Assembly (NCBI RefSeq): GCF_001577755.1
Contig: NZ_CP010776.1
Location: 1,860,001-1,924,000, forward strand
DNA length: 64,000 bases
Source: Rufibacter sp. DG15C
GTDB taxonomy: Bacteria; Bacteroidota; Bacteroidia; Cytophagales; Hymenobacteraceae
Direction: 5' to 3'
A program made the translations under genes and the position numbers. Below the pieces are notes generated by a model. That model saw nothing but the letters and a program-made list of their open reading frames with translations. It searched no databases and was not told the origin of the DNA. Positions 2,043 to 63,087 of the stretch are shown here, piece by piece; the first letter of the stretch is position 1; each line of letters begins with the position of its first letter.

Positions 2043-2080
2043 CGTTTTTGGCCTAATCCCTAGAAAATAGCACAAAAACG
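2043..2080. repeat. P38 palindrome, copy 1
   Basis: 38 bp with CGTTTTTGGCCT at the left and ACAAAAACG at the right; the centre is degenerate. It lies between convergent genes. Its right end forms the first arm of the terminator hairpin at 2074-2122. Confidence 0.8.
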
Positions 2081-2122
2081 GGAAGGCCCTGAAGATTTGT
2101 CTTCAGGGCCTTCCCGTTTTTT
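2074..2122. terminator. Long bidirectional hairpin terminator
   Basis: A 22-bp perfect stem (AAAAACGGGAAGGCCCTGAA at its start) with a TTTG loop, flanked by A and T runs on either side. It suits the minus-strand gene ending at 2150 and also read-through from the plus strand. Confidence 0.85.
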
Positions 2123-2149
2123 ATATAGACTCACGACTCAGAGACTCAA

Positions 2150-2629
2150 TCAAAGACTGACGCCTTTGTGTTTGCCGGCCTGCCGAATGACTTCACGGAC
2201 GGTTTCCAAGTGTTCTTCTGGGACGTCTTCCAGGTCAATTTCGCCGGTGTGGCCGGTGGAGAGGCGGTAGATGAGTTTGTCTGGCTGGACGCGTAGCAGG
2301 TGAATGCTTTCCCACGGCAGGGTATAGGCATCCTCATCGGGCTCCAGTTTAAGTTCTATCTGTTGGTCGTCTACCTGAACGTAGCTTTTACCCACGGGGC
2401 GTTTTTTTCTAATCAATACTACCAAATAAGAGATGCCCAAGGCGCTCTGGATAAGCGGCAACGCGTAGTCAAAGTACTGTGCCTTGCCCGAGGCATATTC
2501 AGTGTACAAGCCAATGAAGCCTACCGCCAAAAAAATGGTAGCCATAGCTGAGTACAGCCAGGACATGGTAGACTTGTTCTCATTAGGAGGAGACAGGTTC
2601 AGGAAGAAAGGCTCCATAGGAATTGCCAT
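2150..2629 (-). CDS. Conserved hypothetical protein with two membrane helices
   Basis: 159 residues. After a short N-terminal stretch there are two hydrophobic segments (roughly residues 22-40 and 52-72), a basic RKKRP turn, and an acidic cytosolic part of about 85 residues whose alternating pattern (YVQVDDQQIEL, LPWESIHLLRV, LIYRLSTG) resembles a bacterial PH-like domain. I do not recognise a named family. Four bases separate the stop codon of the small gene upstream from this ATG, so the two are probably co-transcribed. The long hairpin at 2074-2122 lies just downstream. Confidence 0.8.
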   Translation of the reverse strand: MAIPMEPFFLNLSPPNENKSTMSWLYSAMATIFLAVGFIGLYTEYASGKAQYFDYALPLIQSALGISYLVVLIRKKRPVGKSYVQVDDQQIELKLEPDEDAYTLPWESIHLLRVQPDKLIYRLSTGHTGEIDLEDVPEEHLETVREVIRQAGKHKGVSL

Positions 2630-2633
2630 TTAG

Positions 2634-2810
2634 TTATTTCTGTTTTCGGTTTCTGAGCGTGATAATAAACTTAAACACAACAAACAGAAGAAATCCCAGA
2701 AAAGACATTGCAGGTACAATGATGTTTGGGTGCTCCAGATTGCGCATAAGAATCAGGAAAGAAACCACTAGCATGCCGTTCAAAAGCATGTTTGCGTTGC
2801 GAGTACTCAT
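2634..2810 (-). CDS. Small membrane protein, 58 residues
   Basis: The frame reads ATG at 2810 to TAA at 2634-2636. The product has two hydrophobic helices (about residues 9-22 and 30-51) separated by RNLEHPN, and ends in the basic tail RNRKQK. Four bases separate its stop from the ATG of the next minus-strand gene, which also encodes a two-helix protein; the tight spacing is the main argument that it is real. No family is recognised. Confidence 0.65.
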   Translation of the reverse strand: MSTRNANMLLNGMLVVSFLILMRNLEHPNIIVPAMSFLGFLLFVVFKFIITLRNRKQK

Positions 2811-2942
2811 AAAAGCGTAATAGGGTAATTAGTAAAGATACACAATTACAGGAAACCGTGAACAGTAAACAGGAATTAGTTAATAGTAATCAGTTGTGGT
2901 TGATAAATAGATAGTTAGGTTCGGTTTAAGAAGAGCGGTCGT

Positions 2943-2980
2943 CGTTTTTGGTGTGTTTTCATGAAAAGAGGCTAAAAATG
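2943..2980. repeat. P38 palindrome, copy 2
   Basis: 38 bp, CGTTTTTGGTGTG to AGGCTAAAAATG, with a symmetric CATG centre. It lies between two minus-strand transcription units. Confidence 0.75.
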
Positions 2981-3010
2981 GCATGACTCAAACTATGCCT
3001 TTTATAAAGC

Positions 3011-3046
3011 AAAAGCCCGATGCTCTAGAAAGAACATCGGGCTTTT
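3011..3046. terminator. Terminator of the M28 peptidase gene
   Basis: AAAAGCCCGATG and its complement CATCGGGCTTTT form a 12-bp stem, 22 bases past the stop codon of the minus-strand peptidase gene. Confidence 0.8.
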
Positions 3047-3067
3047 GGTGAGATAAGATGCTAATTA

Positions 3068-4621
3068 TTATGACTGCGGTTTCGGCATGGGTTTGCGCGG
3101 CAGTTTCTCTGCGCGGTTGGCGGTTTGGTACACAAAGTTGGCGACAATTACAGAGGCTTGTTTCAAGTCCTCTGGCTGCAGTCTGTCATAGGTGTCCATG
3201 TTGGTGTGGTGGGTGCGGGTGTTGTACTCAATCTCATCCTGAATGAATTGGAAACCCGGTACACCCAGCGCGTCAAAAGACAAGTGGTCGGTGCCGCCGG
3301 TGTTGCGGTTGGTCACGGTAGAGGCGCCCATGGCGTTGAACGGTTTTAACCACTCAGAGAACAACGGAGCCACGGCCTCATTGCCCTGCGTGTAAATACC
3401 TCTGATTTTTCCGGTACCGTTATCCAGGTTGAAATAAGCGGAGATTTTCTCCTGCTGTGGCAACAAGGCCATCGTTTTAGTATCGCCTATGTACTTCTTG
3501 GCATACCCGCGTGATCCGTGCAGACCTTGCTCCTCACCGCCCCAAAGTGCGATGCGGATGGTGCGCTTAGGCTGTAGGTTCAAGGCTTTGATAATGCGAA
3601 CGGCTTCCATCATCACGGCCACACCCGCGGCGTTGTCGGTGGCGCCGGTGGCGGCGTGCCAAGAGTCAATGTGACCGCCCAGCATCACTACTTCGCTTTT
3701 CAGTTTCTTGTCAGAACCCGGGATCTCCGCGATAACGTTGTAGCCTTGCGGGTCTTCGGTTAAGAAACGGGTTTTGCTTTCCAGTTCAATCTCTACCGGA
3801 ATGCCTGCACTCAACAAACGGCTCATGCGGGCCAGGTCTTCTTGGGCAATCTCGAACTCAGGCAAGGCTGGCTTGGCGTCCATGGCGTATGGTGCACCGT
3901 TGGTAGTGAAGAACGTACCATGTGAACCTCCGCGTGAGCTCAAGATGGCAGCAGCACCTTCAGAGAGAATCATCTCATTCATCTTGGTCACAAACGCACG
4001 ACGGGCACGCATCTGGGCCATGCGCTCTTCGCTCATGGGCGCTCTGCCTTCAGAAGGCGCTACCGGCTCCGCCATTTTGTGCAGGGCCTCATCTGTGTAA
4101 CGCGAGCCGTCTGGGGCAAAGGTTGTTTTGATAGGATTGGTGACCTCGGCCATGACAATCTTGCCTTTCAGTTTGCCGGCGTACTGGGCCAGGTCTTCTT
4201 CTTTGGTGGCTTTCACCAAGACTACCTGCCCTTTTACCGGACCGTTGGTGCTAGGCGTCCAAGCCTTAGGAGAGCCAATCATGGGCTGGTAATACGGCTT
4301 GGTCAGGGCCAGGTAGGATTTCTCTACTTCCCAACCTTTCCCGAAGGTTCCCCACGGTTCAATGGTGGCATTTTTCAAGCCCCAAGAGGCGAGTTTCTCT
4401 TTGGTCCACTGGTTGGCTTTGGCTAGGCCGGTAGAACCCGAAAGGCGCGGGCCGTTCACGTCTGTGAGGTAGAACGCAATGTCCATCACCTGCGACTTCT
4501 GCAGTCCTTCCTGCTTGATTTTCTCTACGATGGCCGCATCTAGCGGCTCGGCTTTTTGCTGGGCCATTGCCGGAAGCGCCAAGAAGGCTGCCCCCAGCAA
4601 AAGGGTATAGGTTTTGTTCAT
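3068..4621 (-). CDS. Secreted M28 family zinc metallopeptidase
   Basis: 517 residues from the ATG at 4621; the frame stays open further upstream, but only this start gives a clean signal peptide (MNKTYTLLLGAAFLALPAMA). M28 enzymes are co-catalytic two-zinc aminopeptidases or carboxypeptidases. The metal and catalytic residues are visible in order: GGHIDSW (His ligand), ATGATDNAAG (bridging Asp), GGEEQGLHGS (catalytic Glu and Glu ligand), NLDNGTG (Asp ligand) and THHTNMDTYD (His ligand). The segment before the catalytic domain, with GPVKGQVVLVKA, fits an inserted PA-like domain. The product probably acts in the periplasm or outside. It is divergent from the enoyl-CoA hydratase gene. Confidence 0.93.
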   Translation of the reverse strand: MNKTYTLLLGAAFLALPAMAQQKAEPLDAAIVEKIKQEGLQKSQVMDIAFYLTDVNGPRLSGSTGLAKANQWTKEKLASWGLKNATIEPWGTFGKGWEVEKSYLALTKPYYQPMIGSPKAWTPSTNGPVKGQVVLVKATKEEDLAQYAGKLKGKIVMAEVTNPIKTTFAPDGSRYTDEALHKMAEPVAPSEGRAPMSEERMAQMRARRAFVTKMNEMILSEGAAAILSSRGGSHGTFFTTNGAPYAMDAKPALPEFEIAQEDLARMSRLLSAGIPVEIELESKTRFLTEDPQGYNVIAEIPGSDKKLKSEVVMLGGHIDSWHAATGATDNAAGVAVMMEAVRIIKALNLQPKRTIRIALWGGEEQGLHGSRGYAKKYIGDTKTMALLPQQEKISAYFNLDNGTGKIRGIYTQGNEAVAPLFSEWLKPFNAMGASTVTNRNTGGTDHLSFDALGVPGFQFIQDEIEYNTRTHHTNMDTYDRLQPEDLKQASVIVANFVYQTANRAEKLPRKPMPKPQS

Positions 4622-4691
4622 GTTAGGTTGGAGTGGGATTAAAGAAATTGAGATAGGAAAGAAACAGAAAAAAAGCGCCAATGGCAACATG

Positions 4692-4722
4692 TTGGCACTC
4701 CCAACCCAAATCTGTACTTTTG
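4692..4722 (+). promoter_or_regulatory. Bacteroidota-type promoter for the enoyl-CoA hydratase gene
   Basis: TTG at 4692-4694, a 20-base spacer and TACTTTTG at 4715-4722 match the -33 TTG / -7 TAnnTTTG consensus. Transcription would start near 4729, exactly at the left edge of P38 copy 3, which would therefore be the 5' leader. Confidence 0.7.
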
Positions 4723-4729
4723 GTAAAAC

Positions 4730-4767
4730 CGTTTTTGACCTCATTTCCACAAAACAGCCCCAAAACA
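4730..4767. repeat. P38 palindrome, copy 3, in a 5' leader
   Basis: 38 bp, CGTTTTTGACCTC to CAGCCCCAAAACA; imperfect arms. It fills the space between the predicted transcription start and the ATG at 4770. Confidence 0.75.
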
Positions 4768-4769
4768 AC

Positions 4770-5552: not shown

Positions 5553-5553
5553 G

Positions 5554-5591
5554 CGTTTTTAGCTTGGTTTCTAGAAAATAGGTCAAAAACG
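5554..5591. repeat. P38 palindrome, copy 4
   Basis: 38 bp with a CTAG centre, starting two bases after the stop codon of the hydratase gene and running into its terminator. Confidence 0.8.
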
Positions 5592-5593
5592 AA

Positions 5594-9010: not shown

Positions 9011-9050
9011 AGAGCCGATCAGAGTAGTCTCTGGTTGGCTCTTCGTTTTT
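9011..9050 (+). terminator. Terminator of the DUF4142 array
   Basis: A 14-bp stem with two G-T pairs (AGAGCCGATCAGAG with CTCTGGTTGGCTCT) and a TAGT loop. The T-run that follows is supplied by the first bases of P38 copy 5. Confidence 0.8.
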
Positions 9051-9081
9051 GGCCTCTTTTCTAGAAAGTAAGCCAAAAACG
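9044..9081. repeat. P38 palindrome, copy 5
   Basis: 38 bp, CGTTTTTGGCCTC to AAGCCAAAAACG, with a CTAG centre. Its left T-tract doubles as the terminator T-tract. Confidence 0.85.
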
Positions 9082-9759: not shown

Positions 9760-9797
9760 CGTTTTTGGCCTGTTTTCAGAGAATCAGGCCAAAAACG
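9760..9797. repeat. P38 palindrome, copy 6
   Basis: The outer 13 bp of both arms (CGTTTTTGGCCTG) pair perfectly; the centre is degenerate. It ends immediately before the first base of the uvrA stop codon. Confidence 0.9.
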
Positions 9798-12980: not shown

Positions 12981-13018
12981 CGTTTTTGGCCTGTTTTCCA
13001 TAAAATAGGCTGAAAGTA
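12981..13018. repeat. P38 palindrome, copy 7
   Basis: The left arm is intact (CGTTTTTGGCCTGTTTTCC); the right arm has decayed at its end (GGCTGAAAGTA). It lies between divergent genes. Confidence 0.75.
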
Positions 13019-13167: not shown

Positions 13168-15834
13168 ATGAAAAAATTTGTTGGCCTTTGGCTGGGTCTT
13201 TTCTGTTTATTGCTGGTGACGCATACTGCCGTTGGGCAGGCTCTTCCCTTAAAGAAAATTACTGCATCTTATTCCCAAAAACCCATTCAAGAAGTGTTTG
13301 CTGACTTGGCACACCAGGCCTCGGTGCGCATTTTCTATAAGCAGGAATGGGTAGACAGCTTACTGGTGACTGATTCTTTTAATGAGGCAGCTTTACCGGT
13401 GGTTCTGGAGAGAGTTTTGGAGAAAGGCCATCTCTCCTATATTCTGTATGACACCTTTACGGTAGTGGTGGTGCCTAAAGAATATGGTCGGCCTGTAAAC
13501 TTAGACTCTGTGTCTTGGAAAAGTACGCAAGCGCTGGCTAACCCTAATAGAAAGGTGGAGTTAAGCGGCAGGGTGTTGAACGGCAAGACCAATGAACCTG
13601 TAGAGGGGGCTACTGTGAAAACGCAAGAAGGCGTGAACATTACCGTAACCGACAGCAACGGAGCTTTTACTTTCTCTTTGCCGGTAGGCACTTATACCTT
13701 GCAGACCCTGGCCCTTGGCATGCGCGAAGACAGCCGTAAAGTCCCCTTAGGCAGCAATAAATACATTACCATTCCTCTTTTTGAAAAAGTAAATGAATTA
13801 AAGGAAGTGGTGGTGACCTCAGCTTCTGTCAACCAACAGGTAGAGCGGCTGCAAATGGGCGTGGCTAAGCTAGATGTGCGGCAATTGAAAATGATGCCTG
13901 CCTTTCTAGGGGAAGTGGACGTGGTGCGCAGTATCTTGTCCTTGCCCGGGGTAACCACCGTAGGCGAAGGCGCCACTGGTTTCAATGTGCGGGGCGGAAG
14001 CATTGACCAGAATTTAATCCTGCAAGACGGGGCTCCCATCTTCAATTCCTCGCACCTGTTTGGCTTCTTCTCAGTGTTTAATCCAGACATGGTGGAAGAC
14101 GTTACTTTGTATAGCGGGGGTATGCCGGCCAGATTTGGTGGCCGCATTTCCTCTGTCTTGGATGTTGCCTTGAAAGAAGGAAGCCCGGAACATTTCAAGG
14201 CAAGTGGCGGCGTGGGGCTGGTGGCTAGCAGACTACAAGTAGAGGGGCCGTTGGTAAAGAACAAGGCATCGTTCTTAGTGGCTGGCCGCGTGGCGTATCC
14301 AGATTGGTTGCTACAGTTCGTGCCCGACCAGTCAGTTAGAAACAGTTCTGGGTATTTTTATGACGCCAACGCCAAATTTACGCTACAGGCAAGTGAAAAA
14401 GACCATCTGAGTTTCTCTGGCTACAAAAGCAAAGACGGTTTCAGGTTTGGGTCAGACACTACGTACACATGGGGCACTAACCTGGCTTCGGTTCAATGGC
14501 AGCATGACTTCTCTAGAACCCTGAGCACCTCTTTGACCGGTGTGCTAGGTCAGTATGATTATGGGTTAAGCTCAAATAAAGAAGCCACAGGGTATACTTT
14601 AGATTTCGGGATTGCCTACCAATTGCTAAAGGCAGAGGCTAACTATAGCTTGAGTGATAAGCACGCCTTTAACGCAGGGGCAGAAGTTACTAACTACCTG
14701 TTTAACCAAGGTGACTTGCAACCTAGTGCCACTTCCATTCTTAGAGCAGAGAAAATGCCCGAGGAAAAGTCTCTGGAAGGAGCCTTGTTTTTAGAGCATG
14801 TTTATACGCCCAGCCCGATTCTATCTATCAGTTACGGACTGCGGTATTCTGGGTATAGGCAATTGGGTCCCGGTGACGCCTTGATTTTGGGGGAGCAACA
14901 AACGCAGGAAGAAGGCACGGTGATTGGAACCATATCTTACAGCAAAGGGGAGGCCATGCAACAGTACTTTACCTTTGAGCCGCGCTTTTCCCTTAGGTAC
15001 ACGCTTAATGAAAACAGTTCAGTGAAGTTGGGGGTGAATAGAACGGCCCAATACGTGCACCTCATCTCCAATACCATGTCTGCCTCTCCGGTAGACATCT
15101 GGAAGACCAGCAACAACAACTTAAAACCGCAGATAGGTGACCAGGTAAGTCTGGGATACTATAGAAACCTGCTGGAACATACCCTAGAACTATCCATAGA
15201 AACGTATTATAAAAGGATTCAAAACGTAGTGGATTACCGGGACGGCGCACAGCTGGTCTTAAACTCCACCCTGGATGCAGAACTAGTGCAGGGCGACGGC
15301 AAGGCCTATGGGTTTGAGGTGATGGCTCGCCGCAAGGAGAAAAGGCTGACCGGTTGGTTGAGTTATTCTTACTCCAGAGCATTCAGAGACGTGAGCACTA
15401 TCAATGGCGGGCGTAGCTACCCGGCCAACTATGACAAGCCGCATAATTTGTCGCTGGTCCTTAACCAGCAACTGGCCAAGCGGTTTAGTGTGTCAGGCAA
15501 TTTTACGTTTAGCACCGGCCGGCCCGCTACTTATCCAGAGTCGGTGGCCAAGGTGGGCGGCATGGTATTTCTGTATTACAATGGCCGCAACCAGTACCGC
15601 ATTCCCAACTACCATAGACTAGATTTGGCCTTTACCCTGGACGGTACCAACAAGAAAAACAAGAAATGGCAGAACAGTTGGGTTTTCTCTTTGTACAACG
15701 TGTACGGGCGCAAAAATCCTTATTCGGTGTACTTTATGCCTTCTTACGGGGGTACCACGCCGCAGGCCTATCAATTGTCTGTCATAGGGGCCATAGTTCC
15801 GGCCCTTACCTATAACTTCAAATTCAACAAATGA
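13168..15834 (+). CDS. TonB-dependent receptor with an STN-like N-terminal domain
   Basis: 888 residues from the ATG at 13168 (MKKFVGLWLGLFCLLL, signal peptide); an ATG 9 bases upstream is also possible. Order: an STN/secretin-like domain (about 28-105, KPIQEVFADLAHQASVRIFY), a carboxypeptidase-like regulatory domain (about 130-215, GRVLNGKTNEPVEGATV), a plug (FNVRGGSIDQNLILQDGAPI, GGMPARFGGRISSVLDV) and an outer-membrane beta-barrel to the end. It imports a ligand using TonB. STN domains often signal to a FecR anti-sigma factor, but no sigma or FecR gene is adjacent. Its stop overlaps the start of the DUF4249 gene by four bases (ATGA). Confidence 0.92.
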   Translation: MKKFVGLWLGLFCLLLVTHTAVGQALPLKKITASYSQKPIQEVFADLAHQASVRIFYKQEWVDSLLVTDSFNEAALPVVLERVLEKGHLSYILYDTFTVVVVPKEYGRPVNLDSVSWKSTQALANPNRKVELSGRVLNGKTNEPVEGATVKTQEGVNITVTDSNGAFTFSLPVGTYTLQTLALGMREDSRKVPLGSNKYITIPLFEKVNELKEVVVTSASVNQQVERLQMGVAKLDVRQLKMMPAFLGEVDVVRSILSLPGVTTVGEGATGFNVRGGSIDQNLILQDGAPIFNSSHLFGFFSVFNPDMVEDVTLYSGGMPARFGGRISSVLDVALKEGSPEHFKASGGVGLVASRLQVEGPLVKNKASFLVAGRVAYPDWLLQFVPDQSVRNSSGYFYDANAKFTLQASEKDHLSFSGYKSKDGFRFGSDTTYTWGTNLASVQWQHDFSRTLSTSLTGVLGQYDYGLSSNKEATGYTLDFGIAYQLLKAEANYSLSDKHAFNAGAEVTNYLFNQGDLQPSATSILRAEKMPEEKSLEGALFLEHVYTPSPILSISYGLRYSGYRQLGPGDALILGEQQTQEEGTVIGTISYSKGEAMQQYFTFEPRFSLRYTLNENSSVKLGVNRTAQYVHLISNTMSASPVDIWKTSNNNLKPQIGDQVSLGYYRNLLEHTLELSIETYYKRIQNVVDYRDGAQLVLNSTLDAELVQGDGKAYGFEVMARRKEKRLTGWLSYSYSRAFRDVSTINGGRSYPANYDKPHNLSLVLNQQLAKRFSVSGNFTFSTGRPATYPESVAKVGGMVFLYYNGRNQYRIPNYHRLDLAFTLDGTNKKNKKWQNSWVFSLYNVYGRKNPYSVYFMPSYGGTTPQAYQLSVIGAIVPALTYNFKFNK

Positions 15835-16928
15835 GAAACGCACACATACGGTTTCTTCTGATAGGGGCACTGGTCTGGTTGTCTGCCTGCATTGAACCGA
15901 TAGAGGTGGTGACCGGTACCCAGCAAGATACCTTGGTGGTAGATGGAACCGTCACTAGTAAAGTAAACCCACAGACCGGGCAGAGAGAGTTGGCATGTAC
16001 TATCCTTTTATCTTCGGCAGAACCCTTTAACAGCGCCTCTGGCATAGTGGTAAGTCGTCCAATTACAGGAGCCCAGGTGTATGTGCAAGACAAGCAGGGG
16101 AACAAATGGCCAGTGCCTGAAAAAACAGAGCTGCAAAACAACAAAGTCACTGTCATAAAGGGTAATTATGGCTTTCTGGTTTCGTCCACTGAGTCACAGG
16201 TGGGCAATGTGTTCACTGTTTTCATTAAACTACCCAACGGAAAAGAATACCAGTCCCAACCAGAGGTGTTGCAAGCGGTGCCCCCAATACAGGAGCTTGA
16301 ATTTATCTTTAAGGAATTTGTAGAAGTTGTTAAGAATGGCGCCGGCGAAAATGTAGAAAAGAAAACCCCGGCCTTTGAGGTAAGCGTGACCGTCAATGAC
16401 CCGGCCAATGCGCAAAATGCCTATAGATGGGAGACCGAGGGCATTTTTCAATACCAGACCAATCCGCCAGAGATCCTTCCACCGCCGGCCTCCATCTGTT
16501 GGTCGTACGCCGGGCGCATTAACAAGCAGATTGAGGCTATAGATGATAGTAGAACCAATGGGCAGCGCATCAAGTTGCCAGTGGCCGTAGTGCCCTTTGA
16601 CCTGCAGACCAGGTACCAGGCCATTGTACGGCAATACTCCCTTACGCCTAAGGCATATGAGTTTTGGCGATTGTACAGACAGCAACAGACCAGTGTAGGC
16701 AGTATCACAGACCCGGCTCCAGCCCAGATTAGAGGCAACCTCTTTAACGTCAAAGATCCCTCAGAAGTGGTCATTGGCTACTTTGGGACCTCAGAAGTGA
16801 ATGAGAAATTCATTATCATCAACCGGTCTCTGTATGGTCCTATGCCTGGCGCACCCTTTGTGGTATTAACCAGAGACTGCCGAGGGCTTTACTCCAACAG
16901 CACGCATATTCCTCCTTTCGGATTTTAA
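15831..16928 (+). CDS. DUF4249 lipoprotein
   Basis: 365 residues with a lipobox LSAC near residue 20, followed by IEPIEVVTG, then a beta-rich body (QDTLVVDGTVTSK, ITGAQVYVQDKQGN, YGFLVSSTESQVG) and a Cys-containing C-terminal part (RDCRGLY) typical of DUF4249. These proteins are surface or periplasmic lipoproteins regularly encoded directly after STN-type TonB receptors in Bacteroidota, so a role as an accessory in ligand capture is inferred. Overlaps the receptor gene by four bases. Confidence 0.88.
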   Translation: MRNAHIRFLLIGALVWLSACIEPIEVVTGTQQDTLVVDGTVTSKVNPQTGQRELACTILLSSAEPFNSASGIVVSRPITGAQVYVQDKQGNKWPVPEKTELQNNKVTVIKGNYGFLVSSTESQVGNVFTVFIKLPNGKEYQSQPEVLQAVPPIQELEFIFKEFVEVVKNGAGENVEKKTPAFEVSVTVNDPANAQNAYRWETEGIFQYQTNPPEILPPPASICWSYAGRINKQIEAIDDSRTNGQRIKLPVAVVPFDLQTRYQAIVRQYSLTPKAYEFWRLYRQQQTSVGSITDPAPAQIRGNLFNVKDPSEVVIGYFGTSEVNEKFIIINRSLYGPMPGAPFVVLTRDCRGLYSNSTHIPPFGF

Positions 16929-16962
16929 TTTGACGTCCACCAGAACCTTCATTGTGCGCAGT

Positions 16963-18867
16963 ATGCCTTGTTTAACAAAATCAAGTAGACTATTCCTGTT
17001 GGCTGTACTACTGAACGTTGTTGGATTCTTCAGCCAGCATAGCAACGCCCAAACTCTTTCATTGCAGGAGCAGGTGAGGAGGGTAGAGGCAGCCTTGGTA
17101 CAAGAACGAATAGCCTTACAGCATGACAAACCATTTTATCTGGCTGGTGAGCAGCTTTGGTTTAACGTGTACTTGTCTGGCCGTGATACTGCAGGCTTGA
17201 GCAAGGTGGTGTATGTAGAAGTGAGGGATGCCAATGGTAAAGAGGTAACCTCCCAAGCTCATTTGGTAACCGACAACTCTGCGACTGGTGACGTTGCGTT
17301 GCCCAAAAATCTGGCTTCGGGGTATTACCAGGTGAAGGCCTATACCGCCTGGATGAAGAATTTTAGCCAAGGGCAGCAGTTCTCCAAAAAGATTCTAATC
17401 ATGAATGCCAAGGATTGGCGAAAAGAGAAGAGCCCCGTTCTAACCCCTTCTCATACAGTGCTCAGCCAAGGTGAACAGCTAGCGTCTGTTGAAGAAAAAG
17501 ATACACTAATAGAGGGAAATGCATTAGCCGCCGCGGCCAAGGAACGCTTGATTGTGAAAGGCCAGCAAGAAGGGAGCCTCTTGGTGCAGGTGCTGGGCAT
17601 GGGTACTCAACCAGCCTTCCTCTTGGCAGAGGCTGGAGGAAAGGTTTTTTACAGCAGTCCCTTAGCCGTCACAGATGACCTGCGCCAACTAGAAGTCCCA
17701 CTCTCAGAAGTGAGAGATAAGCAGGTTCGGTTTCTGCTACTGGATAACCAAGGCAAGGTGCTGGCAGAAGAGCGCGCAGAAATACATGCACCGCAGCTAA
17801 TTCGGGCCGAAGTATTCACTGCAAAAGAACAATACCAGCCCCGTGAAAAAGTAACAGTAAAGGTAAGGCTTACCAGCGGCCAGGCAGGAGTAGGGAATGC
17901 GCAACTGTCAGTGGCTGTATACGCTGACCCTCAACGGTCCTGGGGAGATGTAAAAAGTGAACACCATCAGGATGAAGCCTTATGGCAAGCCATTGAGGCC
18001 GGAGAGAATAAAAGGCAGCACCTAAAAGAAACAGAGGTTTTCCCGCTCCCTAGAGCATCTGGCAAGGGAACAAGGTTGCAAGAGGCTCAAAGCCCTATTA
18101 CAAACCCCGCCGTAAAAATTTCTGCTTCTGTTAATCAAGAACTGCAACGGCTGGAGGCGGTGCAGTTTCTTGAAGAGGCCTATGAGGTAAAGAGGTATGA
18201 GAAGCTGTACCAGCCTATTCCGTTGCATATGGATAAGACGTTTAAGTTAGACCAGTACATTGACTTTGCGTCCACAGAAAGCGCCATCCAGGAAGTCACC
18301 TCTAACCTTAGATTGAGCAAGCAGAAAGGAAAATTCCAACTCCGGATTTTATATACTGACCAGTTCACCAAATACTTTTTTAAGGAAGAGCCGCTTTACC
18401 TGGTGGATGGGGTCATGGTCAAAGACATTGATGAGATTCTTCAACTAGACCCTAAAGACCTGGAAAGTATTCAGCTTGCCTGGAAAACAGAAACCCTCAG
18501 CCGTAACAACCTGGACCAACTAGCCTGGAACGGAATATTCTTAGTCAATACCAAGGGTGCTGCCCATAGAGAAAGGTTGGTAAAAAGGGGCTTTCAGGCT
18601 TTGTTTGCCCACTTGGATGTGCCTTACACCCTTCAAGAAGTTAAACAAGAGAGCTCAGGCCAAGAGACAATCCCAGATTTAAGAGTTTCTTTAGGTTGGT
18701 TTCCTGGGTTAAAAACTGACAAGGACGGATGGGCCACCTTTGAGTTCACAACCTCAGATGACCTTGACACTTTTAGGGTAGCCATTATGGGTGTTGCAGA
18801 GCAAGGAGAAATGGTACAAGCCCACAAATTTTTCCAAGTGACGGCTCCTCCGGCTACAGCTAAGTAG
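16963..18867 (+). CDS. MG2-domain protein with a plug-like insert, partner of the TonB receptor
   Basis: 634 residues from the ATG at 16963; a TTG at 16930 in frame is less likely. A signal peptide precedes an N-terminal MG2-type (alpha-2-macroglobulin-like) domain: ALQHDKPFYLAGEQLWFNVY and SGYYQVKAYTAWMKNF. The middle holds a second macroglobulin-like stretch (YQPREKVTVKVRLTS). Near residue 480 a short segment, LYLVDGVMVKDIDEIL followed by LDPKDLESIQL, looks like a TonB-receptor plug. The C-terminus (LKTDKDGWATFEFTTSDDL) resembles the end of a macroglobulin domain. It is the third gene of the operon and is probably exported to the periplasm or outer membrane. Confidence 0.8.
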   Translation: MPCLTKSSRLFLLAVLLNVVGFFSQHSNAQTLSLQEQVRRVEAALVQERIALQHDKPFYLAGEQLWFNVYLSGRDTAGLSKVVYVEVRDANGKEVTSQAHLVTDNSATGDVALPKNLASGYYQVKAYTAWMKNFSQGQQFSKKILIMNAKDWRKEKSPVLTPSHTVLSQGEQLASVEEKDTLIEGNALAAAAKERLIVKGQQEGSLLVQVLGMGTQPAFLLAEAGGKVFYSSPLAVTDDLRQLEVPLSEVRDKQVRFLLLDNQGKVLAEERAEIHAPQLIRAEVFTAKEQYQPREKVTVKVRLTSGQAGVGNAQLSVAVYADPQRSWGDVKSEHHQDEALWQAIEAGENKRQHLKETEVFPLPRASGKGTRLQEAQSPITNPAVKISASVNQELQRLEAVQFLEEAYEVKRYEKLYQPIPLHMDKTFKLDQYIDFASTESAIQEVTSNLRLSKQKGKFQLRILYTDQFTKYFFKEEPLYLVDGVMVKDIDEILQLDPKDLESIQLAWKTETLSRNNLDQLAWNGIFLVNTKGAAHRERLVKRGFQALFAHLDVPYTLQEVKQESSGQETIPDLRVSLGWFPGLKTDKDGWATFEFTTSDDLDTFRVAIMGVAEQGEMVQAHKFFQVTAPPATAK

Positions 18868-18880: not shown

Positions 18881-18918
18881 CGTTTTTGACCTACTTTTCA
18901 TAAAACAGGCCAAAAACG
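18881..18918. repeat. P38 palindrome, copy 8
   Basis: 38 bp, CGTTTTTGACCTA to AGGCCAAAAACG, 13 bases after the MG2 stop codon, between convergent genes. Confidence 0.85.
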
Positions 18919-23904: not shown

Positions 23905-23940
23905 AAAAGAGCCCGAAGACTTTCGTTTTCGGGCTCTTTT
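23905..23940. terminator. Terminator of the LOG-family gene, shared with P38 copy 10
   Basis: AAAAGAGCCCGAA pairs with TTCGGGCTCTTTT (13 bp). The right arm is also the left part of P38 copy 10, so the two folds compete. Confidence 0.85.
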
Positions 23941-23961
23941 CTGGGAAACAAGCCAAAAATG
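23924..23961. repeat. P38 palindrome, copy 10
   Basis: 38 bp, CGTTTTCGGGCTCTTTTCT to AAGCCAAAAATG, CTGG centre (reverse orientation of the usual CCAG). Confidence 0.8.
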
Positions 23962-24857: not shown

Positions 24858-24895
24858 CGTTTTTGCCCTCTTTTCTGGAAAACACGCAGAAAACA
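24858..24895. repeat. P38 palindrome, copy 11, in a likely 5' leader
   Basis: 38 bp, CGTTTTTGCCCTCTTTTCT to AGAAAACA with decayed right arm; CTGG centre. It starts 14 bases upstream of the LOG-family ATG. Confidence 0.7.
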
Positions 24896-30883: not shown

Positions 30884-30921
30884 CGTTTTTAGCCTGATTT
30901 TCAGAAAACAGCCCAAAAACG
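30884..30921. repeat. P38 palindrome, copy 13
   Basis: 38 bp, CGTTTTTAGCCTG to CAGCCCAAAAACG, between the response regulator gene and ispD. Confidence 0.85.
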
Positions 30922-32234: not shown

Positions 32235-32272
32235 CGGTTTTGGCCTCTTTTCCAGAAGAGAGGCTAAAAACG
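32235..32272. repeat. P38 palindrome, copy 14
   Basis: 38 bp, CGGTTTTGGCCTC to AGGCTAAAAACG; it lies between convergent genes. Confidence 0.85.
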
Positions 32273-33067: not shown

Positions 33068-33069
33068 AA

Positions 33070-33150
33070 TAATGACTAGTGATTAATGACTAATGATTAA
33101 TAGTTCTGGAGATGCTCCTTTAATCATTAATCATTAGTCATTATTCATTA
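33070..33150. repeat. AT-rich inverted repeat of TAATGATTAATGAC units
   Basis: The arms 33070-33100 and 33120-33150 are near-complementary with one small indel and flank a GGAGATGCTCC core. They exactly fill the gap between two minus-strand genes. Composition is like the repeat at 862-1000. Confidence 0.65.
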
Positions 33151-33372
33151 TTAATATTCGTCCTCGTTGAACATGAAGTCCTCTTTGGTCGGGTAGTCCG
33201 GCCAAACCTCCTCAATGCTCTCGTATGGCTGACCATCGTCTTCCAGGGCTTGTAGGTTTTCTACTACTTCCATGGGCGCGCCCGAGCGGATAGAGTAGTC
33301 AATCAATTCATCCTTGGTGGCCGGCCATGGTGCGTCTTCCAGGTAAGAGGCTAGTTCCAGTGTCCAATACAT
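33151..33372 (-). CDS. DUF2795 family small acidic protein
   Basis: 73 residues, highly conserved type in Bacteroidota: MYWTLELASYLEDAPWPATK, then DELIDYSIRSGAP, VVENLQALEDDG and VWPDYPTKEDF. Strongly acidic, with no membrane or signal segment. The function is unknown. It is separated from its neighbours by the AT-rich inverted repeat on one side and 148 featureless bases on the other. Confidence 0.92.
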   Translation of the reverse strand: MYWTLELASYLEDAPWPATKDELIDYSIRSGAPMEVVENLQALEDDGQPYESIEEVWPDYPTKEDFMFNEDEY

Positions 33373-35875: not shown

Positions 35876-35913
35876 CGTTTTTGGGCTGTTTTTGTGAAAC
35901 TAAGCCAAAAACG
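35876..35913. repeat. P38 palindrome, copy 15
   Basis: 38 bp, CGTTTTTGGGCTG to AAGCCAAAAACG, 46 bases upstream of the ettA ATG, between divergent genes. Confidence 0.85.
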
Positions 35914-37630: not shown

Positions 37631-37668
37631 CGTTTTTCATCTATTTCCCAGAAAAGAGCCCGAAAACG
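37631..37668. repeat. P38 palindrome, copy 16
   Basis: 38 bp, CGTTTTTCATCTA to AGAGCCCGAAAACG, directly after ettA. Its right arm is the left arm of the next hairpin. Confidence 0.85.
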
Positions 37669-38724: not shown

Positions 38725-38762
38725 CGTTTTTGCCCTGTTTTCATCAAAAGAGCCCGAAAACG
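38725..38762. repeat. P38 palindrome, copy 17
   Basis: 38 bp, CGTTTTTGCCCTG to AGAGCCCGAAAACG; the right half is reused in the terminator. Confidence 0.85.
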
Positions 38763-39821: not shown

Positions 39822-39859
39822 CGGTTTTGGCCTGTTTTCATGAAAAGAGCCCGAAAACG
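39822..39859. repeat. P38 palindrome, copy 18
   Basis: 38 bp, CGGTTTTGGCCTG to AGAGCCCGAAAACG, CATG centre; its right half is shared with the terminator. Confidence 0.85.
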
Positions 39860-40597: not shown

Positions 40598-40954
40598 AGT
40601 GGTAGGAAAATAGTGACGAGAAAAGGAAATACCCCATAGGGTTGAATTGCTTTCAACGAAGTTTCACCAGCTTAGTTTTCAAAGCGTTATACAGGTCCGT
40701 CTCCTGAAAGAAGGCATTTCTGAGAAAGGCCAATCTTCGTTTTTGGCCTGTTTTCCAGAATTCAGCCCAAAAACGAAGTTCCAGAATCCATGCTTCTCAT
40801 TGCACGGTAACCCCTCTGCTTAAAGGATGACCGCTGCGCTAGTTAAAGTTTTGTTAAACACGGCGCTAGACGCTAAGGATGCCTGGGCTTTTTGCTAAAA
40901 TTAACTCTCCATTAAGAAAAGCACCTTTACTTGGTCATCGTCAAATCCATTTTT
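40598..40954. other. Divergent intergenic region upstream of the TonB-receptor-like gene
   Basis: It holds P38 copy 19 and a small GTTGAA-TTGC-TTTCAAC hairpin near 40640-40660; no gene is seen. Confidence 0.6.
40738..40775. repeat. P38 palindrome, copy 19
   Basis: 38 bp, intact left half (CGTTTTTGGCCTGTTTTCC) and right end CAGCCCAAAAACG; it lies between divergent genes. Confidence 0.88.
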
Positions 40955-43748: not shown

Positions 43749-43786
43749 CGTTTTTAGCCTGTTTTCTACAAAAGAGCCCCAAAACG
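43749..43786. repeat. P38 palindrome, copy 20
   Basis: 38 bp, CGTTTTTAGCCTG to AGAGCCCCAAAACG, four bases after the stop codon of the receptor-like gene. Confidence 0.85.
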
Positions 43787-46068: not shown

Positions 46069-46106
46069 CGGTTTTGGCTTCTTTTCCGAAAAACAGGCCA
46101 AAAGCG
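46069..46106. repeat. P38 palindrome, copy 21
   Basis: 38 bp, CGGTTTTGGCTTC to AGGCCAAAAGCG, downstream of the orphan kinase gene. Confidence 0.82.
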
Positions 46107-48609: not shown

Positions 48610-48647
48610 CGTTTTTGGCTTGTTTTCGAGGAATTAGGCTAAAAACG
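48610..48647. repeat. P38 palindrome, copy 22
   Basis: 38 bp, CGTTTTTGGCTTG to AGGCTAAAAACG. Confidence 0.83.
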
Positions 48648-49207: not shown

Positions 49208-49245
49208 CGTTTTTAGCCTAATTCCCAGAAAGGAGGCCAAAAACA
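49208..49245. repeat. P38 palindrome, copy 23
   Basis: 38 bp, CGTTTTTAGCCTA to AGGCCAAAAACA, running into the terminator. Confidence 0.82.
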
Positions 49246-52577: not shown

Positions 52578-52614
52578 CGTTTTTAGCCTGTTTTCTAGGG
52601 ATTAGCCCAAAACG
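52578..52614. repeat. P38 palindrome, copy 24 (37 bp)
   Basis: CGTTTTTAGCCTG to TTAGCCCAAAACG; one A is missing from the right arm, the only internal length change among the well-preserved copies. Confidence 0.8.
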
Positions 52615-54349: not shown

Positions 54350-54387
54350 CGTTTCTAGGCCATTTTCCAGAAAACAGGTCAAAAACG
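54350..54387. repeat. P38 palindrome, copy 25, in the ruvX leader
   Basis: 38 bp, CGTTTCTAGGCCA to CAGGTCAAAAACG. It ends six bases before the ruvX ATG. Confidence 0.8.
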
Positions 54388-55394: not shown

Positions 55395-55431
55395 AAAAGC
55401 CTCACTTGTTGCAGAACAGGTGAGGCTTTTT
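55395..55431. terminator. Terminator of def
   Basis: AAAAGCCTCACTTGTT pairs in part with AACAGGTGAGGCTTTT, between convergent genes; P38 copy 26 starts directly after it. Confidence 0.85.
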
Positions 55432-55469
55432 CGTTTTTGGCCTGTTTTGGCGGAAAGGGGCTAAAAACA
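55432..55469. repeat. P38 palindrome, copy 26
   Basis: 38 bp, CGTTTTTGGCCTG to GGGGCTAAAAACA. Confidence 0.82.
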
Positions 55470-57888: not shown

Positions 57889-57926
57889 CGTTTTCGGGCT
57901 AATTTCCAGGAAACAGGCCAAAAACG
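57889..57926. repeat. P38 palindrome, copy 27
   Basis: 38 bp, CGTTTTCGGGCTA to CAGGCCAAAAACG. Confidence 0.85.
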
Positions 57927-60521: not shown

Positions 60522-60527
60522 GCCAGA

Positions 60528-60564
60528 AAGCGCAACGGGAAACCAAACCTGTTGCGCTTTTTTG
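60528..60564 (+). terminator. Terminator of ctpA
   Basis: AAAGCGCAAC pairs with GTTGCGCTTT, followed by a T-run. Confidence 0.85.
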
Positions 60565-60592
60565 TTTTCTTTACTTTTTAAGCGCGCTCTGT

Positions 60593-60630
60593 CGTTTTTG
60601 GCCTGTTTCCTGGAAACCAAGCCAAAAACG
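60593..60630. repeat. P38 palindrome, copy 28
   Basis: 38 bp, CGTTTTTGGCCTG to AAGCCAAAAACG, CTGG centre. Confidence 0.87.
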
Positions 60631-60689
60631 ATGCTGTAAACAAGAGTGCATTCACTCATTCCTTCCATCACTCAATCATTCATTTTGTA

Positions 60690-61889
60690 ATGGCATATTA
60701 TCATAAGCTAGGCACCTTCCCGCATAAACGGCACACGCAGTTCAGGCAGCCCGACGGCAGTCTGTACCATGAGCAGTTGGTGGGTACCCTGGGCTTCAGT
60801 GGGGTTTCTTCCTTGCTGTACCACAAGAACCCGCCTACCAAGATTACGCGCATAGATGAACCGGTGCCGTACGCGCCAACCAAGTCCAATGTGCCGCTGG
60901 CGCCCTACCATTTGCGTCCCTTCAAAGGCGAATCTACGGGCCAGGACTATTTGAGCGCGCGCAAGACGGTCTTGATGAACAATGACTGCGTGATCTCTAT
61001 CTGCTTGCCGGTGGAGCGCGAGATGACGTATTTCTACAAGAATGCGCTGGCAGATGAGATTGTGTTTATCCATGAGGGCTCGGGTGAGTTGCTGTCCCAG
61101 ATGGGCCGCCTGGAGGTACGGGCTGGTGACTACGTAGTCATTCCCAGAACCATCATCCACCAATGGAAGTGGAACGAAGGCCCCGTACGCCTACTCATCA
61201 CCGAGAGCTTCAGTCCGGTAGAGACGGTGCGCCGCTATAGAAACCACTTCGGGCAGTTGCTGGAACATTCACCGTACTGTGAGCGTGACATTAGAGCGCC
61301 GCATGAACTTATCCAGGATGATGCTCCCGGCGATTATCTGGTACAGATCAAAAAGGAAGGCTTCCTGCATCAGTACCATTATGGCTTCTCACCGCTGGAT
61401 GTGGTGGGCTGGGACGGCTACTTCTATCCGTACGCGTTGTCCATCCATGACTTTGAGCCCATTACCGGCCGCATTCACCAGCCGCCTCCCGTGCACCAGA
61501 CCTTTGAGACGCAGGGATTTGTGGTGTGCTCCTTCGTGCCGCGTTTGTTTGACTATCATCCATTGGCCATTCCGGCGCCTTACAACCACTCCAACGTAGA
61601 TTCAGACGAAATCCTGTACTACGTAGAAGGCAACTTCATGAGCCGCAAGGGCGTGGACATCGGGTCGTTTACCATCCACCCAAGCGGCCTGCCGCACGGT
61701 CCGCACCCGGGTACGGTAGAGGCCAGCATTGGCAAGAAAGAGACGCATGAACTGGCCGTCATGATTGACACCTTTAAGCCGCTCTATTTAACCAACGAGG
61801 CCTTAGAGTTGCTGGACCAGAACTACCCCATGAGCTGGAACCCAGACGTAGCCCCTGCCGCCCCCAGACCCGCAGATATGATGGATTAG
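60690..61889 (+). CDS. hmgA: Homogentisate 1,2-dioxygenase
   Basis: 399 residues, the bacterial HmgA length class. Opens the ring of homogentisate to maleylacetoacetate in tyrosine degradation. Seen: FIHEGSGELLSQMGRLEVRAGDYVVIP (cupin), PYNHSNVDSDEILYYVEG with iron ligands His and Glu, and FTIHPSGLPHGPHPG with the third His. Fumarylacetoacetase and maleylacetoacetate isomerase are not adjacent. Confidence 0.93.
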   Translation: MAYYHKLGTFPHKRHTQFRQPDGSLYHEQLVGTLGFSGVSSLLYHKNPPTKITRIDEPVPYAPTKSNVPLAPYHLRPFKGESTGQDYLSARKTVLMNNDCVISICLPVEREMTYFYKNALADEIVFIHEGSGELLSQMGRLEVRAGDYVVIPRTIIHQWKWNEGPVRLLITESFSPVETVRRYRNHFGQLLEHSPYCERDIRAPHELIQDDAPGDYLVQIKKEGFLHQYHYGFSPLDVVGWDGYFYPYALSIHDFEPITGRIHQPPPVHQTFETQGFVVCSFVPRLFDYHPLAIPAPYNHSNVDSDEILYYVEGNFMSRKGVDIGSFTIHPSGLPHGPHPGTVEASIGKKETHELAVMIDTFKPLYLTNEALELLDQNYPMSWNPDVAPAAPRPADMMD

Positions 61890-61927
61890 CGTTTTCGGCC
61901 TGTTTCTATAGAAACAGGCCGAAAACG
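61890..61927. repeat. P38 palindrome, copy 29, perfect
   Basis: All 19 base pairs match: CGTTTTCGGCCTGTTTCTA and its exact reverse complement. It overlaps no terminator; the next hairpin starts eight bases later. Confidence 0.95.
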
Positions 61928-61934
61928 GATAGAA

Positions 61935-61975
61935 ATCAGAACAGCCTCTCTTGTGAAGGAGAGGCTGTTCTGATT
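61935..61975 (+). terminator. Terminator of hmgA
   Basis: ATCAGAACAGCCTCTC pairs with GAGAGGCTGTTCTGAT (16 bp) around TTGTGAAG, then TATT. The stem sequence recurs at 62923-62964. Confidence 0.8.
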
Positions 61976-62039
61976 ATTAGAGGCACTCCTTTGCCTTAAT
62001 TAATACTGAAAAGTGAAAGAATTTGTAAATATCCGGACA

Positions 62040-62873
62040 GTGAATAAGTGGCTTGTTTTACTACTCATGACACTATTTTGCACATCATGCTCAAATAGGG
62101 AAGGATATGTGCAGTATGAGTATTATCCAAATGGAGAAATAAAGGCCCAAACAGAAATCCTTAATGGAGAATGGCACGGTAAACGAGTGCGTTTTTATCC
62201 TAGTGGCAAAGTGGAGACTATCTCCTACTTTAAAGACGGGCTAAATGAAGGGGAAATGATAGACTATTATGAACATGGGCAAGTTGCGGGTAGGATTATG
62301 TATAAGAATAACCTTCTTCAAGGGCCTGCAAAGTATTATTACCCCAATGGTAAATTAGAGGTTGAGGCTCAATATAAAAACGATATAGCAGTTGGGTGGG
62401 TAAAGTTCTATAGGGAAGATGGAAGTCTTACGGCAATGGATCACCATGTTGTTAATCTGTATGAGCCAAATGGCAGAAAGGAATTAAGTCAAGTTATCAA
62501 ATTTGATGAGCTTGGGAGAATTATGAAGGACAGTAGTTATTATGTTAGTGTGAGTAGTAACTGTAATGAGGTTAGATTGAATGACACTTGCTTTCTCACG
62601 GTTACATTAGAAAAACCTAAGCTTAAACAAAGTATGCAGTTATTGATAGGTGGTTATGATGAGTTCTTTAAACTAGTTGACCCAAGCCAACAAGACACGA
62701 TAAAAGGAAAGAATTTTAAAGCAACGTATAGATTTGTTGCCAAGGAGAAAGGGTTAAATGTTATCAGGGGACGAGTTGATGACTTTGAGCAAGAGTATTT
62801 TAAAAACACTGATACAGTAGCCGTTAGGCGTGAACGTAGGTTATGCTTCTCTAAAACAATTATAGTCCGGTAA
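62040..62873 (+). CDS. MORN-repeat lipoprotein (YwqK-like)
   Basis: 277 residues from a GTG at 62040 (VNKWLVLLLMTLFCTSC gives a clean lipobox); a GTG at 62013 in frame is the alternative. After the lipobox come MORN_2-type repeats: YYPNGEIKAQTEI, FYPSGKVETISYFKDGL, YYEHGQVAGRIMYKNNL, YYPNGKLEVEAQYKND and FYREDGSL, each with Y/F-Y-x-x-G-K. A C-terminal beta domain of about 120 residues, not recognised, follows. GC is near 38 percent. Database labels of antitoxin for such repeats are not supported here, as no toxin gene adjoins it. Confidence 0.78.
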   Translation: MNKWLVLLLMTLFCTSCSNREGYVQYEYYPNGEIKAQTEILNGEWHGKRVRFYPSGKVETISYFKDGLNEGEMIDYYEHGQVAGRIMYKNNLLQGPAKYYYPNGKLEVEAQYKNDIAVGWVKFYREDGSLTAMDHHVVNLYEPNGRKELSQVIKFDELGRIMKDSSYYVSVSSNCNEVRLNDTCFLTVTLEKPKLKQSMQLLIGGYDEFFKLVDPSQQDTIKGKNFKATYRFVAKEKGLNVIRGRVDDFEQEYFKNTDTVAVRRERRLCFSKTIIVR

Positions 62874-62922
62874 ATGGAGCTAACTGAAAACCGCTGCCTA
62901 ATCAAAAAAAACTAAAACGCTA

Positions 62923-62964
62923 CTGCAGAACAGCCTTTCTTTTACAAGAGAGGCTGTTCTGCAG
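62923..62964. repeat. Hairpin duplicated from the hmgA terminator
   Basis: CTGCAGAACAGCCTTTCT pairs with AGAGAGGCTGTTCTGCAG (one mismatch). The core CAGAACAGCCT and AGGCTGTTCTG is the same as at 61935-61975; the two copies bracket the MORN gene. Confidence 0.75.
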
Positions 62965-63050
62965 GAAGACAGCTCAAGCATTTATTAACTTCCATAATCC
63001 TGCCAGCGGCTCAGTCAGGCGCTCAACTTACGGGAGACCTCAGTTCTTGC

Positions 63051-63087
63051 CGTTTTCACCTCCTTCCCAGAAAACAGCATAAAACCG
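63051..63087. repeat. P38 palindrome, copy 30, decayed
   Basis: CGTTTTCACCTCC to AGAAAACAGCATAAAACCG; arms poorly paired, 37 bp. Confidence 0.55.

What the first reader, a model, noticed from the sequence alone, without database searches (positions are those of the whole stretch)
2043..63087. A 38-bp palindrome family present at almost every transcription-unit boundary
By eye I find 30 copies (P38) in 64 kb: 28 are exactly 38 bp, two are 37 bp. The half-site is close to CGTTTTTGGCCTGTTTTCC, followed by its complement. All are intergenic: 10 between convergent, 5 between divergent and 15 between tandem genes. None lies in the short gaps inside apparent operons (DUF4142 array, receptor-DUF4249-MG2, kinase-regulator, ruvX-def). 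Length is conserved although sequence drifts, which argues for selection on a symmetric DNA site or an RNA hairpin rather than passive decay. T-tract first and A-tract last is the inverse of an intrinsic terminator, so it is not simply that. Possible roles: binding site of a nucleoid or domain-boundary protein, an mRNA processing or stabilising hairpin, or a REP-like element moved by an enzyme elsewhere.
Basis: partly seen in the sequence, partly recalled or inferred. Interest (0 to 1): 0.88.

Follow-up and report, generated by a model that had tools for sequence, protein, structure and literature searches.

The report
Genus-wide palindrome at gene-unit ends
A 38-base mirror-image DNA sign stands at the ends of many protein-gene units in one group of bacteria, stays in the same places while its spelling drifts together across the genome, and looks like the docking site of a still unknown DNA-binding protein.

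Summary
In detail: 30 copies in the window and 196 in a 464-kb sample of the chromosome, against none in a 264-kb shuffled control, or about 1,750 per 4.14-Mb genome. The pattern is found in the Rufibacter-group genus only, bar one lone match in 238 other genomes of the order.

Copies sit mostly at transcription-unit ends: often 0-12 nt after a stop codon or exactly against an intrinsic terminator, and at 2 of 51 within-operon gene ends. Against two relatives, 106 of 110 and 54 of 64 syntenic gaps agree in presence or absence. Flanks have largely decayed while copies stay 83% and 70% identical. Species differ in spelling at the same sites.

In this genome the arms do not covary overall, the centre is exactly 4 nt in 180 of 183, and sense-strand G-U mismatches do not exceed A-C. 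This favours a double-stranded protein site over an RNA hairpin.

Best reading: a genus-specific site of an unidentified dimeric DNA-binding protein at mRNA unit ends. A REP-like copied element is a serious rival: 47.7 bits where 11 suffice, local arm covariation in relatives, and Y1 domains in all 15 other genus members, though not here. Protein and function are not shown.

The parts
2043..2080 (.). P38 copy, convergent gap
2943..2980 (.). P38 copy, tandem
4730..4767 (.). P38 copy, divergent gap (start of the plus-strand gene uncertain)
5554..5591 (.). P38 copy, 1 nt after a stop codon; a terminator follows
9044..9081 (.). P38 copy, a terminator ends exactly at its first base
9760..9797 (.). 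P38 copy directly at the uvrA stop codon; at 0 nt in six of seven species examined, -7 in the seventh
12981..13018 (.). P38 copy, divergent gap
18881..18918 (.). P38 copy, 13 nt after a stop codon
23099..23136 (.). P38 copy, tandem
23924..23961 (.). P38 copy sharing an arm with a terminator-like hairpin (23905-23940)
24858..24895 (.). P38 copy, tandem, near a start codon
27483..27520 (.). P38 copy, 5 nt after the stop of the queuosine-synthesis gene
30884..30921 (.). P38 copy, tandem (called divergent through a doubtful small ORF)
32235..32272 (.). P38 copy, convergent gap
35876..35913 (.). P38 copy, divergent gap
37631..37668 (.). P38 copy 3 nt after the ABC-F stop codon; right arm is the 5' arm of a terminator; 3 nt in six of seven species, 4 in the seventh
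38725..38762 (.). P38 copy sharing an arm with a terminator
39822..39859 (.). P38 copy sharing an arm with a terminator
40738..40775 (.). P38 copy, divergent gap, flanks extend the palindrome
43749..43786 (.). P38 copy 4 nt after a stop codon, shares an arm with a terminator (by eye)
46069..46106 (.). P38 copy, tandem
48610..48647 (.). P38 copy, convergent gap (left of two)
49208..49245 (.). P38 copy, convergent gap (right of two)
52578..52614 (.). P38 copy, 37-bp form, a terminator abuts it
54350..54387 (.). P38 copy, divergent gap upstream of ruvX
55432..55469 (.). P38 copy, convergent gap, inverted repeat 55395-55430 directly beside it
57889..57926 (.). P38 copy, tandem
60593..60630 (.). 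P38 copy, tandem
61890..61927 (.). P38 copy, perfect palindrome directly after a stop codon
63051..63087 (.). P38 copy, 37-bp form

Best explanation
P38 is a double-stranded DNA binding site: two 19-bp half-sites (each roughly GTTTT-N6-GTTTT, one helical turn apart) in exact inverted register, read by an unidentified dimeric or tetrameric sequence-specific protein of the Rufibacter group. About 1,750 sites stand in this chromosome, usually one per gap, at many protein-coding transcription-unit boundaries, often directly after the stop codon or fused to an intrinsic terminator. SHOWN by computation: number, position, rigid geometry, overall independence of the arms in this genome, constraint in place across species, and a species-specific spelling that shifts at the same slots. 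INFERRED: that a protein binds it; that spelling and protein co-evolve; that the bound protein acts where transcription ends, for example as a block just downstream of the terminator that stops leftover or antisense RNA polymerase and so separates neighbouring units.
For: Arms independent across 196 copies: 2,528 Watson-Crick pairs against 2,546 +/- 14 after shuffling partners. Centre exactly 4 nt in 180 of 183 arm pairs here, and 120 of 129, 117 of 119 and 95 of 99 in G017, G048 and G012. Isolated half-sites scoring 15 or more: 2 in 464 kb, where 91% of the 392 arms of real copies reach that score. Orthologous copies 0.83 identical with anchored 20-nt flanks at 0.47 and 0.44 (G017, n=49), 0.70 against 0.31 and 0.31 (G048, n=19), with the T-tract and A-tract positions nearly invariant. 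Occupancy agrees in 106 of 110 syntenic gaps with G017 and 54 of 64 with G048, while orthologous copies in G048 are no more alike than random ones (26.8 against 26.4 of 38; G017 31.5 against 29.0). Different palindromic consensus per species at comparable density. Placement: tandem median 28 nt after the stop, 118 before the next start; 63 of 88 unit-end genes with syntenic orthologs in both relatives carry one within 100 nt; of 26 ends with P38 45-75 nt after the stop, 15 have a terminator before it, whose hairpin ends within 1 nt of P38 in 11.
Against: No protein was identified. The site holds 47.7 bits where about 11.2 would mark its places, more than a plain operator needs and typical of copied repeats. 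Arms do covary on the whole in two of eight species tested: G012 (total z +4.0; pair 7 z 5.2, pair 6 2.6) and G037 (total +2.7; pairs 1 and 6); single pairs stand out elsewhere (G048 pairs 1 and 7, G017 pair 12, here pair 3 at z 2.6) among 17 pairs each. Flank bases outside the 38-mer pair more than chance here (pairs 1-3, z about 3.3-3.6), partly because some copies form the top of a terminator stem. Copies are weak or decayed in some genus members (6 intergenic palindromes of this form in 400 kb of G006 against 67 in 464 kb here), so the site is not essential to the genus. 25 of 59 divergent gaps also carry it, where no transcript should end. None follows the 5 tRNA genes or 3 rRNA operons looked at, which speaks against a general supercoiling or insulation role. 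A hard block right after a stop codon would truncate its own gene, so the block idea fits the terminator-then-P38 order better than the stop-then-P38 order.
Confidence: 0.48

Rival explanations
1. REP-like non-autonomous mobile palindrome: P38 was copied around by an enzyme, preferring terminator hairpins and gene ends, and old copies are overwritten by the current spelling.
For: 47.7 bits of sequence, far above need; exact abutment to, and nesting inside, terminator hairpins; sub-spellings with symmetric changes in G012 and G037, as described for REP subfamilies in PMC3733652 (passages read); at some genes the copy lies at a different distance from the stop in more distant relatives; fewer copies at genes without syntenic orthologs (7 of 25); Y1 domains in all 15 other genus members searched.
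Against: No Y1 domain found in this genome, and Y1 also occurs in 17 of 22 genomes outside the genus; no target-site duplication; no GTAG or CGTC tag; no isolated half or TIR-bounded longer element in 464 kb; none of the 4 gaps that differ between this genome and G017 shows a clean 38-bp insertion; same slots in species with different spellings.
Confidence: 0.27
2. Self-recognition (uptake) signal kept up by recombination, as neisserial DUS and Pasteurellaceae USS.
For: Mean spacing about 2.3 kb, species dialects in place, gene-end bias, bias to genes with syntenic orthologs, 1 degraded copy in 95 kb of a Rufibacter tibetensis plasmid.
Against: No PilT/PilB-type ATPase above cut-off in this genome, one weak match below it; few partial sites outside the copies (8 isolated halves at the lower score of 12, 5.3 expected); strict palindrome.
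Confidence: 0.1
3. RNA hairpin at mRNA 3' ends (stabiliser or processing signal).
For: 3'-end position; a perfect copy folds well (-28.1 kcal/mol, z -9.6); absent from the stable-RNA ends looked at; some outer stems pair; covariation of some pairs in G012 and G037.
Against: No overall pairing covariation inside the 38-mer here; G-U 381 against A-C 409 in sense strands pooled over eight species (G048, G045, G060 and G012 lean slightly to G-U, G000, G017, G037 and G032 to A-C); fixed loop length; of five stretches folded, one does not form the P38 hairpin and another prefers the neighbouring terminator.
Confidence: 0.08
4. Ordinary intrinsic terminator family.
For: A subset shares an arm with or is nested in a terminator.
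Against: The 38-mer has no U-tract after its stem; 42 of 62 copies within 12 nt of a stop have no terminator beside them that my finder detects; none of 18 divergent gaps of 100-400 nt with P38 holds one at thresholds 28 or 32.
Confidence: 0.05

Closest known systems
REP / BIME elements (GTAG- and CGTC-tagged palindromes, PMC3733652, passages read)
   Same: Short palindrome, high copy, extragenic, mostly downstream of genes, species-specific spelling with symmetric sub-variants in some relatives.
   Different: No one-sided tag, no Y1 domain found in this genome, rigid centre, mostly single copies, slots kept across species, arms independent overall in this genome.
DNA uptake sequences of Neisseriaceae and their dialects (PMC2397512 passages read; PMC3630211 seen in the search listing only)
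   Same: Thousands of sites, dialects, bias to gene ends and terminators.
   Different: 38-bp palindrome instead of a 10-12-mer; rare in coding DNA; no type IV pilus ATPase above cut-off.
Operators of dimeric DNA-binding and nucleoid proteins such as Noc, MatP, SlmA (recalled, no call)
   Same: Palindromic half-sites in fixed helical register.
   Different: Those have tens of sites (recalled); here about 1,750, at unit boundaries, with drifting spelling.
Bidirectional intrinsic terminators
   Same: Same places; physically fused in a subset.
   Different: Stem order is T-tract first, A-tract last; outer terminator stems differ between orthologs while P38 stays in several ends printed.

Membership tests
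REP (GTAG/CGTC-tagged) | 20-40 bp palindrome in high copy, extragenic, downstream of genes | tested here: met
REP (GTAG/CGTC-tagged) | unpaired GTAG or CGTC tag at one end | tested here: not met
   flank composition shows no fixed tetranucleotide; both ends read CGTT symmetrically
REP (GTAG/CGTC-tagged) | associated Y1/RAYT transposase | tested here: not met
   0 PF01797 matches in this genome; at least 1 in each of the 15 other genus members and in 17 of 22 genomes outside the genus
MITE | target-site duplication | tested here: not met
   direct flanking repeats of 2-9 nt not above shuffled
MITE | longer TIR-bounded parent element | tested here: inconclusive
   none in 464 kb; nearly nine tenths of the genome not scanned for halves
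DNA uptake sequence | raises uptake of DNA carrying it | not testable with these tools
   needs transformation assays
DNA uptake sequence | type IV pilus uptake machinery | tested here: not met
   PF00437: one weak sub-cut-off match only; other competence genes not searched
Intrinsic terminator | GC stem followed by U-tract | tested here: inconclusive
   not met by the 38-mer itself; met by terminators that abut, share an arm with or enclose a subset
RNA hairpin | pairs kept by covariation, G-U tolerated over A-C | tested here: not met
   exceptions: G012 and G037 covary overall, single pairs in G048, G017 and here
Operator of a dimeric protein | inverted half-sites at fixed spacing, halves mutate independently | tested here: met
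   in this genome; independence does not hold in G012 and G037
Operator of a dimeric protein | cognate protein binds it | not testable with these tools
   no candidate identified

The most novel reading that the evidence does not exclude
A dedicated bacterial boundary-marking system: one DNA-binding protein per species sits at most mRNA transcription-unit ends, coupled to terminators, and protein and more than a thousand sites change their recognition code together while keeping their places, a kind of genome-wide dialect drift that I know for no bacterial transcription boundary factor.
Probability: 0.28. Interest if true: 0.9.

Novelty: new variant of a known kind. Interest (0 to 1): 0.7.

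Why it matters
A site with more than a thousand copies is expected to freeze the specificity of whatever reads it, yet here the code has moved in place between sister species. That gives a natural experiment on how a protein and its genome-wide sites change together. If the protein acts at unit ends, it would also be a termination or boundary factor outside Rho and plain hairpins. If it turns out to be a copied element, it is one that settles next to terminators without the usual enzyme in this genome.

Tried and rejected
RNA hairpin: set aside as the main selected trait because of arm independence here, G-U/A-C parity and fixed centre. RAYT/REP in the usual form: no Y1 domain here, though all 15 other genus members have one or more. 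Target duplication and longer TIR element: none found. Even spacing (nucleoid lattice): spacing CV 0.95 and 0.71 against 0.84 and 0.76 for random gaps, not more regular. Phage carriage: 0 exact pattern matches in viral contigs. An apparent P38 inside tilS is protein-coding sequence present in all 16 genus members, not an insertion.

Differently spelled families in other genera: one search looked for repeated palindrome words in pooled loci of Adhaeribacter, Hymenobacter, Pontibacter and Flectobacillus/Arcicella and showed none that I took for P38 (a GGTTGC pair at span 38 recurs in Hymenobacter and Pontibacter; probably one conserved stretch of these orthologous loci, not checked). The same test did not bring P38 to the top in the pooled Rufibacter loci either, so it is insensitive to mixed spellings and excludes little. 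What is shown is only that this pattern is absent elsewhere.

Not used: one search had a pattern one base too long (39); replace it. The 40-kb dialect scans of weak species contain many false sites; I rely. The alignment-based slot count (48 of 49 and 19 of 19) is biased because the sites pull the alignment; I use and the distances. Papers: PMC3733652, PMC2397512 and PMC12306157 seen as passages only; PMC3630211 and others in search listings only. The listings of five searches of the held library showed nothing on this repeat in Rufibacter.
Full report
WHAT WAS CHECKED. The window is bases 1,860,001-1,924,000 of a single 4,143,738-bp chromosome. A symmetric weight matrix built from window copies finds 30 sites in the window and 196 in 464 kb of this genome, with a clear gap between the lowest site (17.4) and the best other position (1.7), and no site in a 264-kb shuffled control at a threshold of 4 or more. 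That is 0.42 per kb, or about 1,750 per genome by extrapolation.

WHERE IT IS FOUND. With up to 2 mismatches the pattern matches 1,094 times here and 8 to 1,438 times in the 15 other genus members, and in none of 23 genomes of other genera. In a second sample of 241 genomes of the order, 1 of 238 genomes outside the genus has a single match. Low counts in some members reflect a different spelling rather than absence: refitted matrices, calibrated to about one false site per 200 kb, give 0.36 to 0.75 sites per kb in G017, G048, G012, G037, G045, G032 and G060. In G006 the family is really thin: 6 intergenic palindromes of this form in 400 kb against 67 in 464 kb here. On an unrooted tilS tree G000, G017 and G048, the three with most matches, separate from the other 13 (support 99/95). 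A Rufibacter tibetensis plasmid has one degraded copy in 95 kb examined, where about 40 would be expected at chromosomal density, but the dialect of that species is not known to me.

POSITION. Gaps of 38 nt or more with a copy: 43 of 57 convergent, 25 of 59 divergent, 92 of 190 tandem. In tandem gaps the median is 28 nt after the stop and 118 nt before the next start. The distances from the stop have a peak at 0-12 nt and a second at about 50-70 nt. In the 264-kb part, 2 of 51 gene ends inside operons have one within 60 nt; among unit-end genes, 63 of 88 with syntenic orthologs in both G017 and G048, 16 of 30 with one in G017 only, and 7 of 25 with neither have one within 100 nt. Neither the 5 tRNA genes nor the 3 rRNA operons have one at their 3' ends. 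Spacing is no more regular than chance. Twenty copies lie inside my ORF calls, tilS and mutL certainly.

TERMINATORS. Three arrangements recur. Stop, P38, terminator: of 62 copies within 12 nt of a stop, 15 have a detected terminator after them, 5 overlap one, 42 have none that I detect. Stop, terminator, P38: of 26 copies 45-75 nt after the stop, 15 have a terminator before them, and in 11 of these its hairpin ends within 1 nt of P38's first base. Nested: 30 of 196 copies have at least 4 of 5 flanking bases complementary, against 6.3 expected, several with a T-run behind, so that P38 forms the top of a terminator stem. In several orthologous ends the outer stem differs between species while P38 stays (for example own gene 92 in three species, genes 49 and 173 in two). 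After the ABC-F gene a terminator whose 5' arm is the P38-like right arm stands in the 8 Rufibacter-group loci printed. In tandem gaps of 100-400 nt, a terminator over the threshold of 32 is found in 28 of 71 with P38 and 6 of 47 without; in convergent gaps of 30-400 nt in 24 of 36 and 6 of 12. Tandem gaps without P38 probably include within-operon gaps.

DNA SITE OR HAIRPIN. If a hairpin were selected, a change in one arm should be matched in the other. Across 196 copies it is not: 2,528 pairs against 2,546 +/- 14 for shuffled partners. Pair 10 is often C-C or G-G, pair 13 A-C or G-T. Sense-strand mismatches pooled over eight species' tandem copies are 381 G-U and 409 A-C. The centre is 4 nt in 180 of 183. 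Half-sites hardly occur alone (2 in 464 kb at a score that 91% of real arms reach). All this fits two half-sites of a protein in fixed helical register. Results on the other side: G012 (total z +4.0; pair 7 at 5.2, pair 6 at 2.6) and G037 (total +2.7; pairs 1 and 6) do covary; G048 at pairs 1 and 7, G017 at pair 12 and this genome at pair 3 (z 2.6) have single pairs above chance. Flank pairs 1-3 outside the 38-mer exceed chance here (z about 3.3-3.6). I read the first as coexisting spellings and the last as terminators built around P38, but neither reading is proved.

IN-PLACE DRIFT. Syntenic gaps agree in presence or absence in 106 of 110 with G017 and 54 of 64 with G048. None of the 4 differing gaps in G017 shows a clean 38-bp insertion (three alignments, the fourth, hardly alignable). 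At the uvrA end P38 lies 0 nt from the stop in six of seven species (-7 in G045), at the ABC-F end 3 nt in six and 4 in one. At other genes the copy has changed distance, for example 5 or 6 nt in two species and 54-100 nt in five, one of these a weak match. Anchored flanks are at 0.47 and 0.44 identity (G017) or 0.31 and 0.31 (G048), P38 at 0.83 or 0.70, with a fixed set of near-invariant positions. Orthologous copies in G048 resemble each other no more than random pairs (26.8 against 26.4 of 38), in G017 only a little more (31.5 against 29.0). The consensus differs symmetrically: TTTTTGGCC-type here, TTTTCGGGC-type in G048, TTTAGGGGC-type in G045. So the places are largely inherited and the spelling is set by the species.

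WHAT IT MOST LIKELY IS. The simplest account of constraint in place, rigid geometry, independent halves and species-wide spelling is a binding site of a trans-acting protein whose preference has drifted. Its place beside terminators at protein-coding unit ends suggests action where transcription stops. The excess of information (47.7 bits against about 11) is the main argument for the rival, a copied element; so are the exact junctions with terminator hairpins and the covariation in G012 and G037. No Y1 domain is found here, but all 15 other genus members have one or more, so a recently lost enzyme is possible; no target duplication is seen. An uptake signal would explain dialects well but no pilus ATPase above cut-off was found. 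I put the protein-site reading at about one half.

LIMITS. Gene calls come from a simple codon-usage finder of my own. About 12% of this genome was read in full. My terminator finder is crude. No experiment bears on any of this.

Noticed in passing
   Followed up: no
window 33068-33152: AT-rich inverted repeat, 33-nt arms 88% complementary, 19 nt between, beside a minus-strand gene start.
   Followed up: no
window 13168-18867: Three-gene block without reciprocal-best orthologs in the syntenic regions of the six relatives examined, with a P38 on either side (12981 and 18881).
   Followed up: partly
L044:1074-1111: A high-scoring P38 inside intact tilS, made of protein-coding sequence present in 16 of 16 genus members; here, in G017 and in G048 the codons spell the P38 ends (TTTTTGG, AAAAACG) more closely than in most others.
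   Followed up: partly
G012, G037 and G048 copies (L212-L231 and others): Arm-to-arm covariation at one or two outer pairs (position 7 above all), suggesting coexisting sub-spellings.
   Followed up: partly
L252:43496-43533 (Rufibacter tibetensis plasmid NZ_CP012644.1): One degraded P38 in 95 kb of plasmid, where chromosomal density would give about 40.
   Followed up: yes
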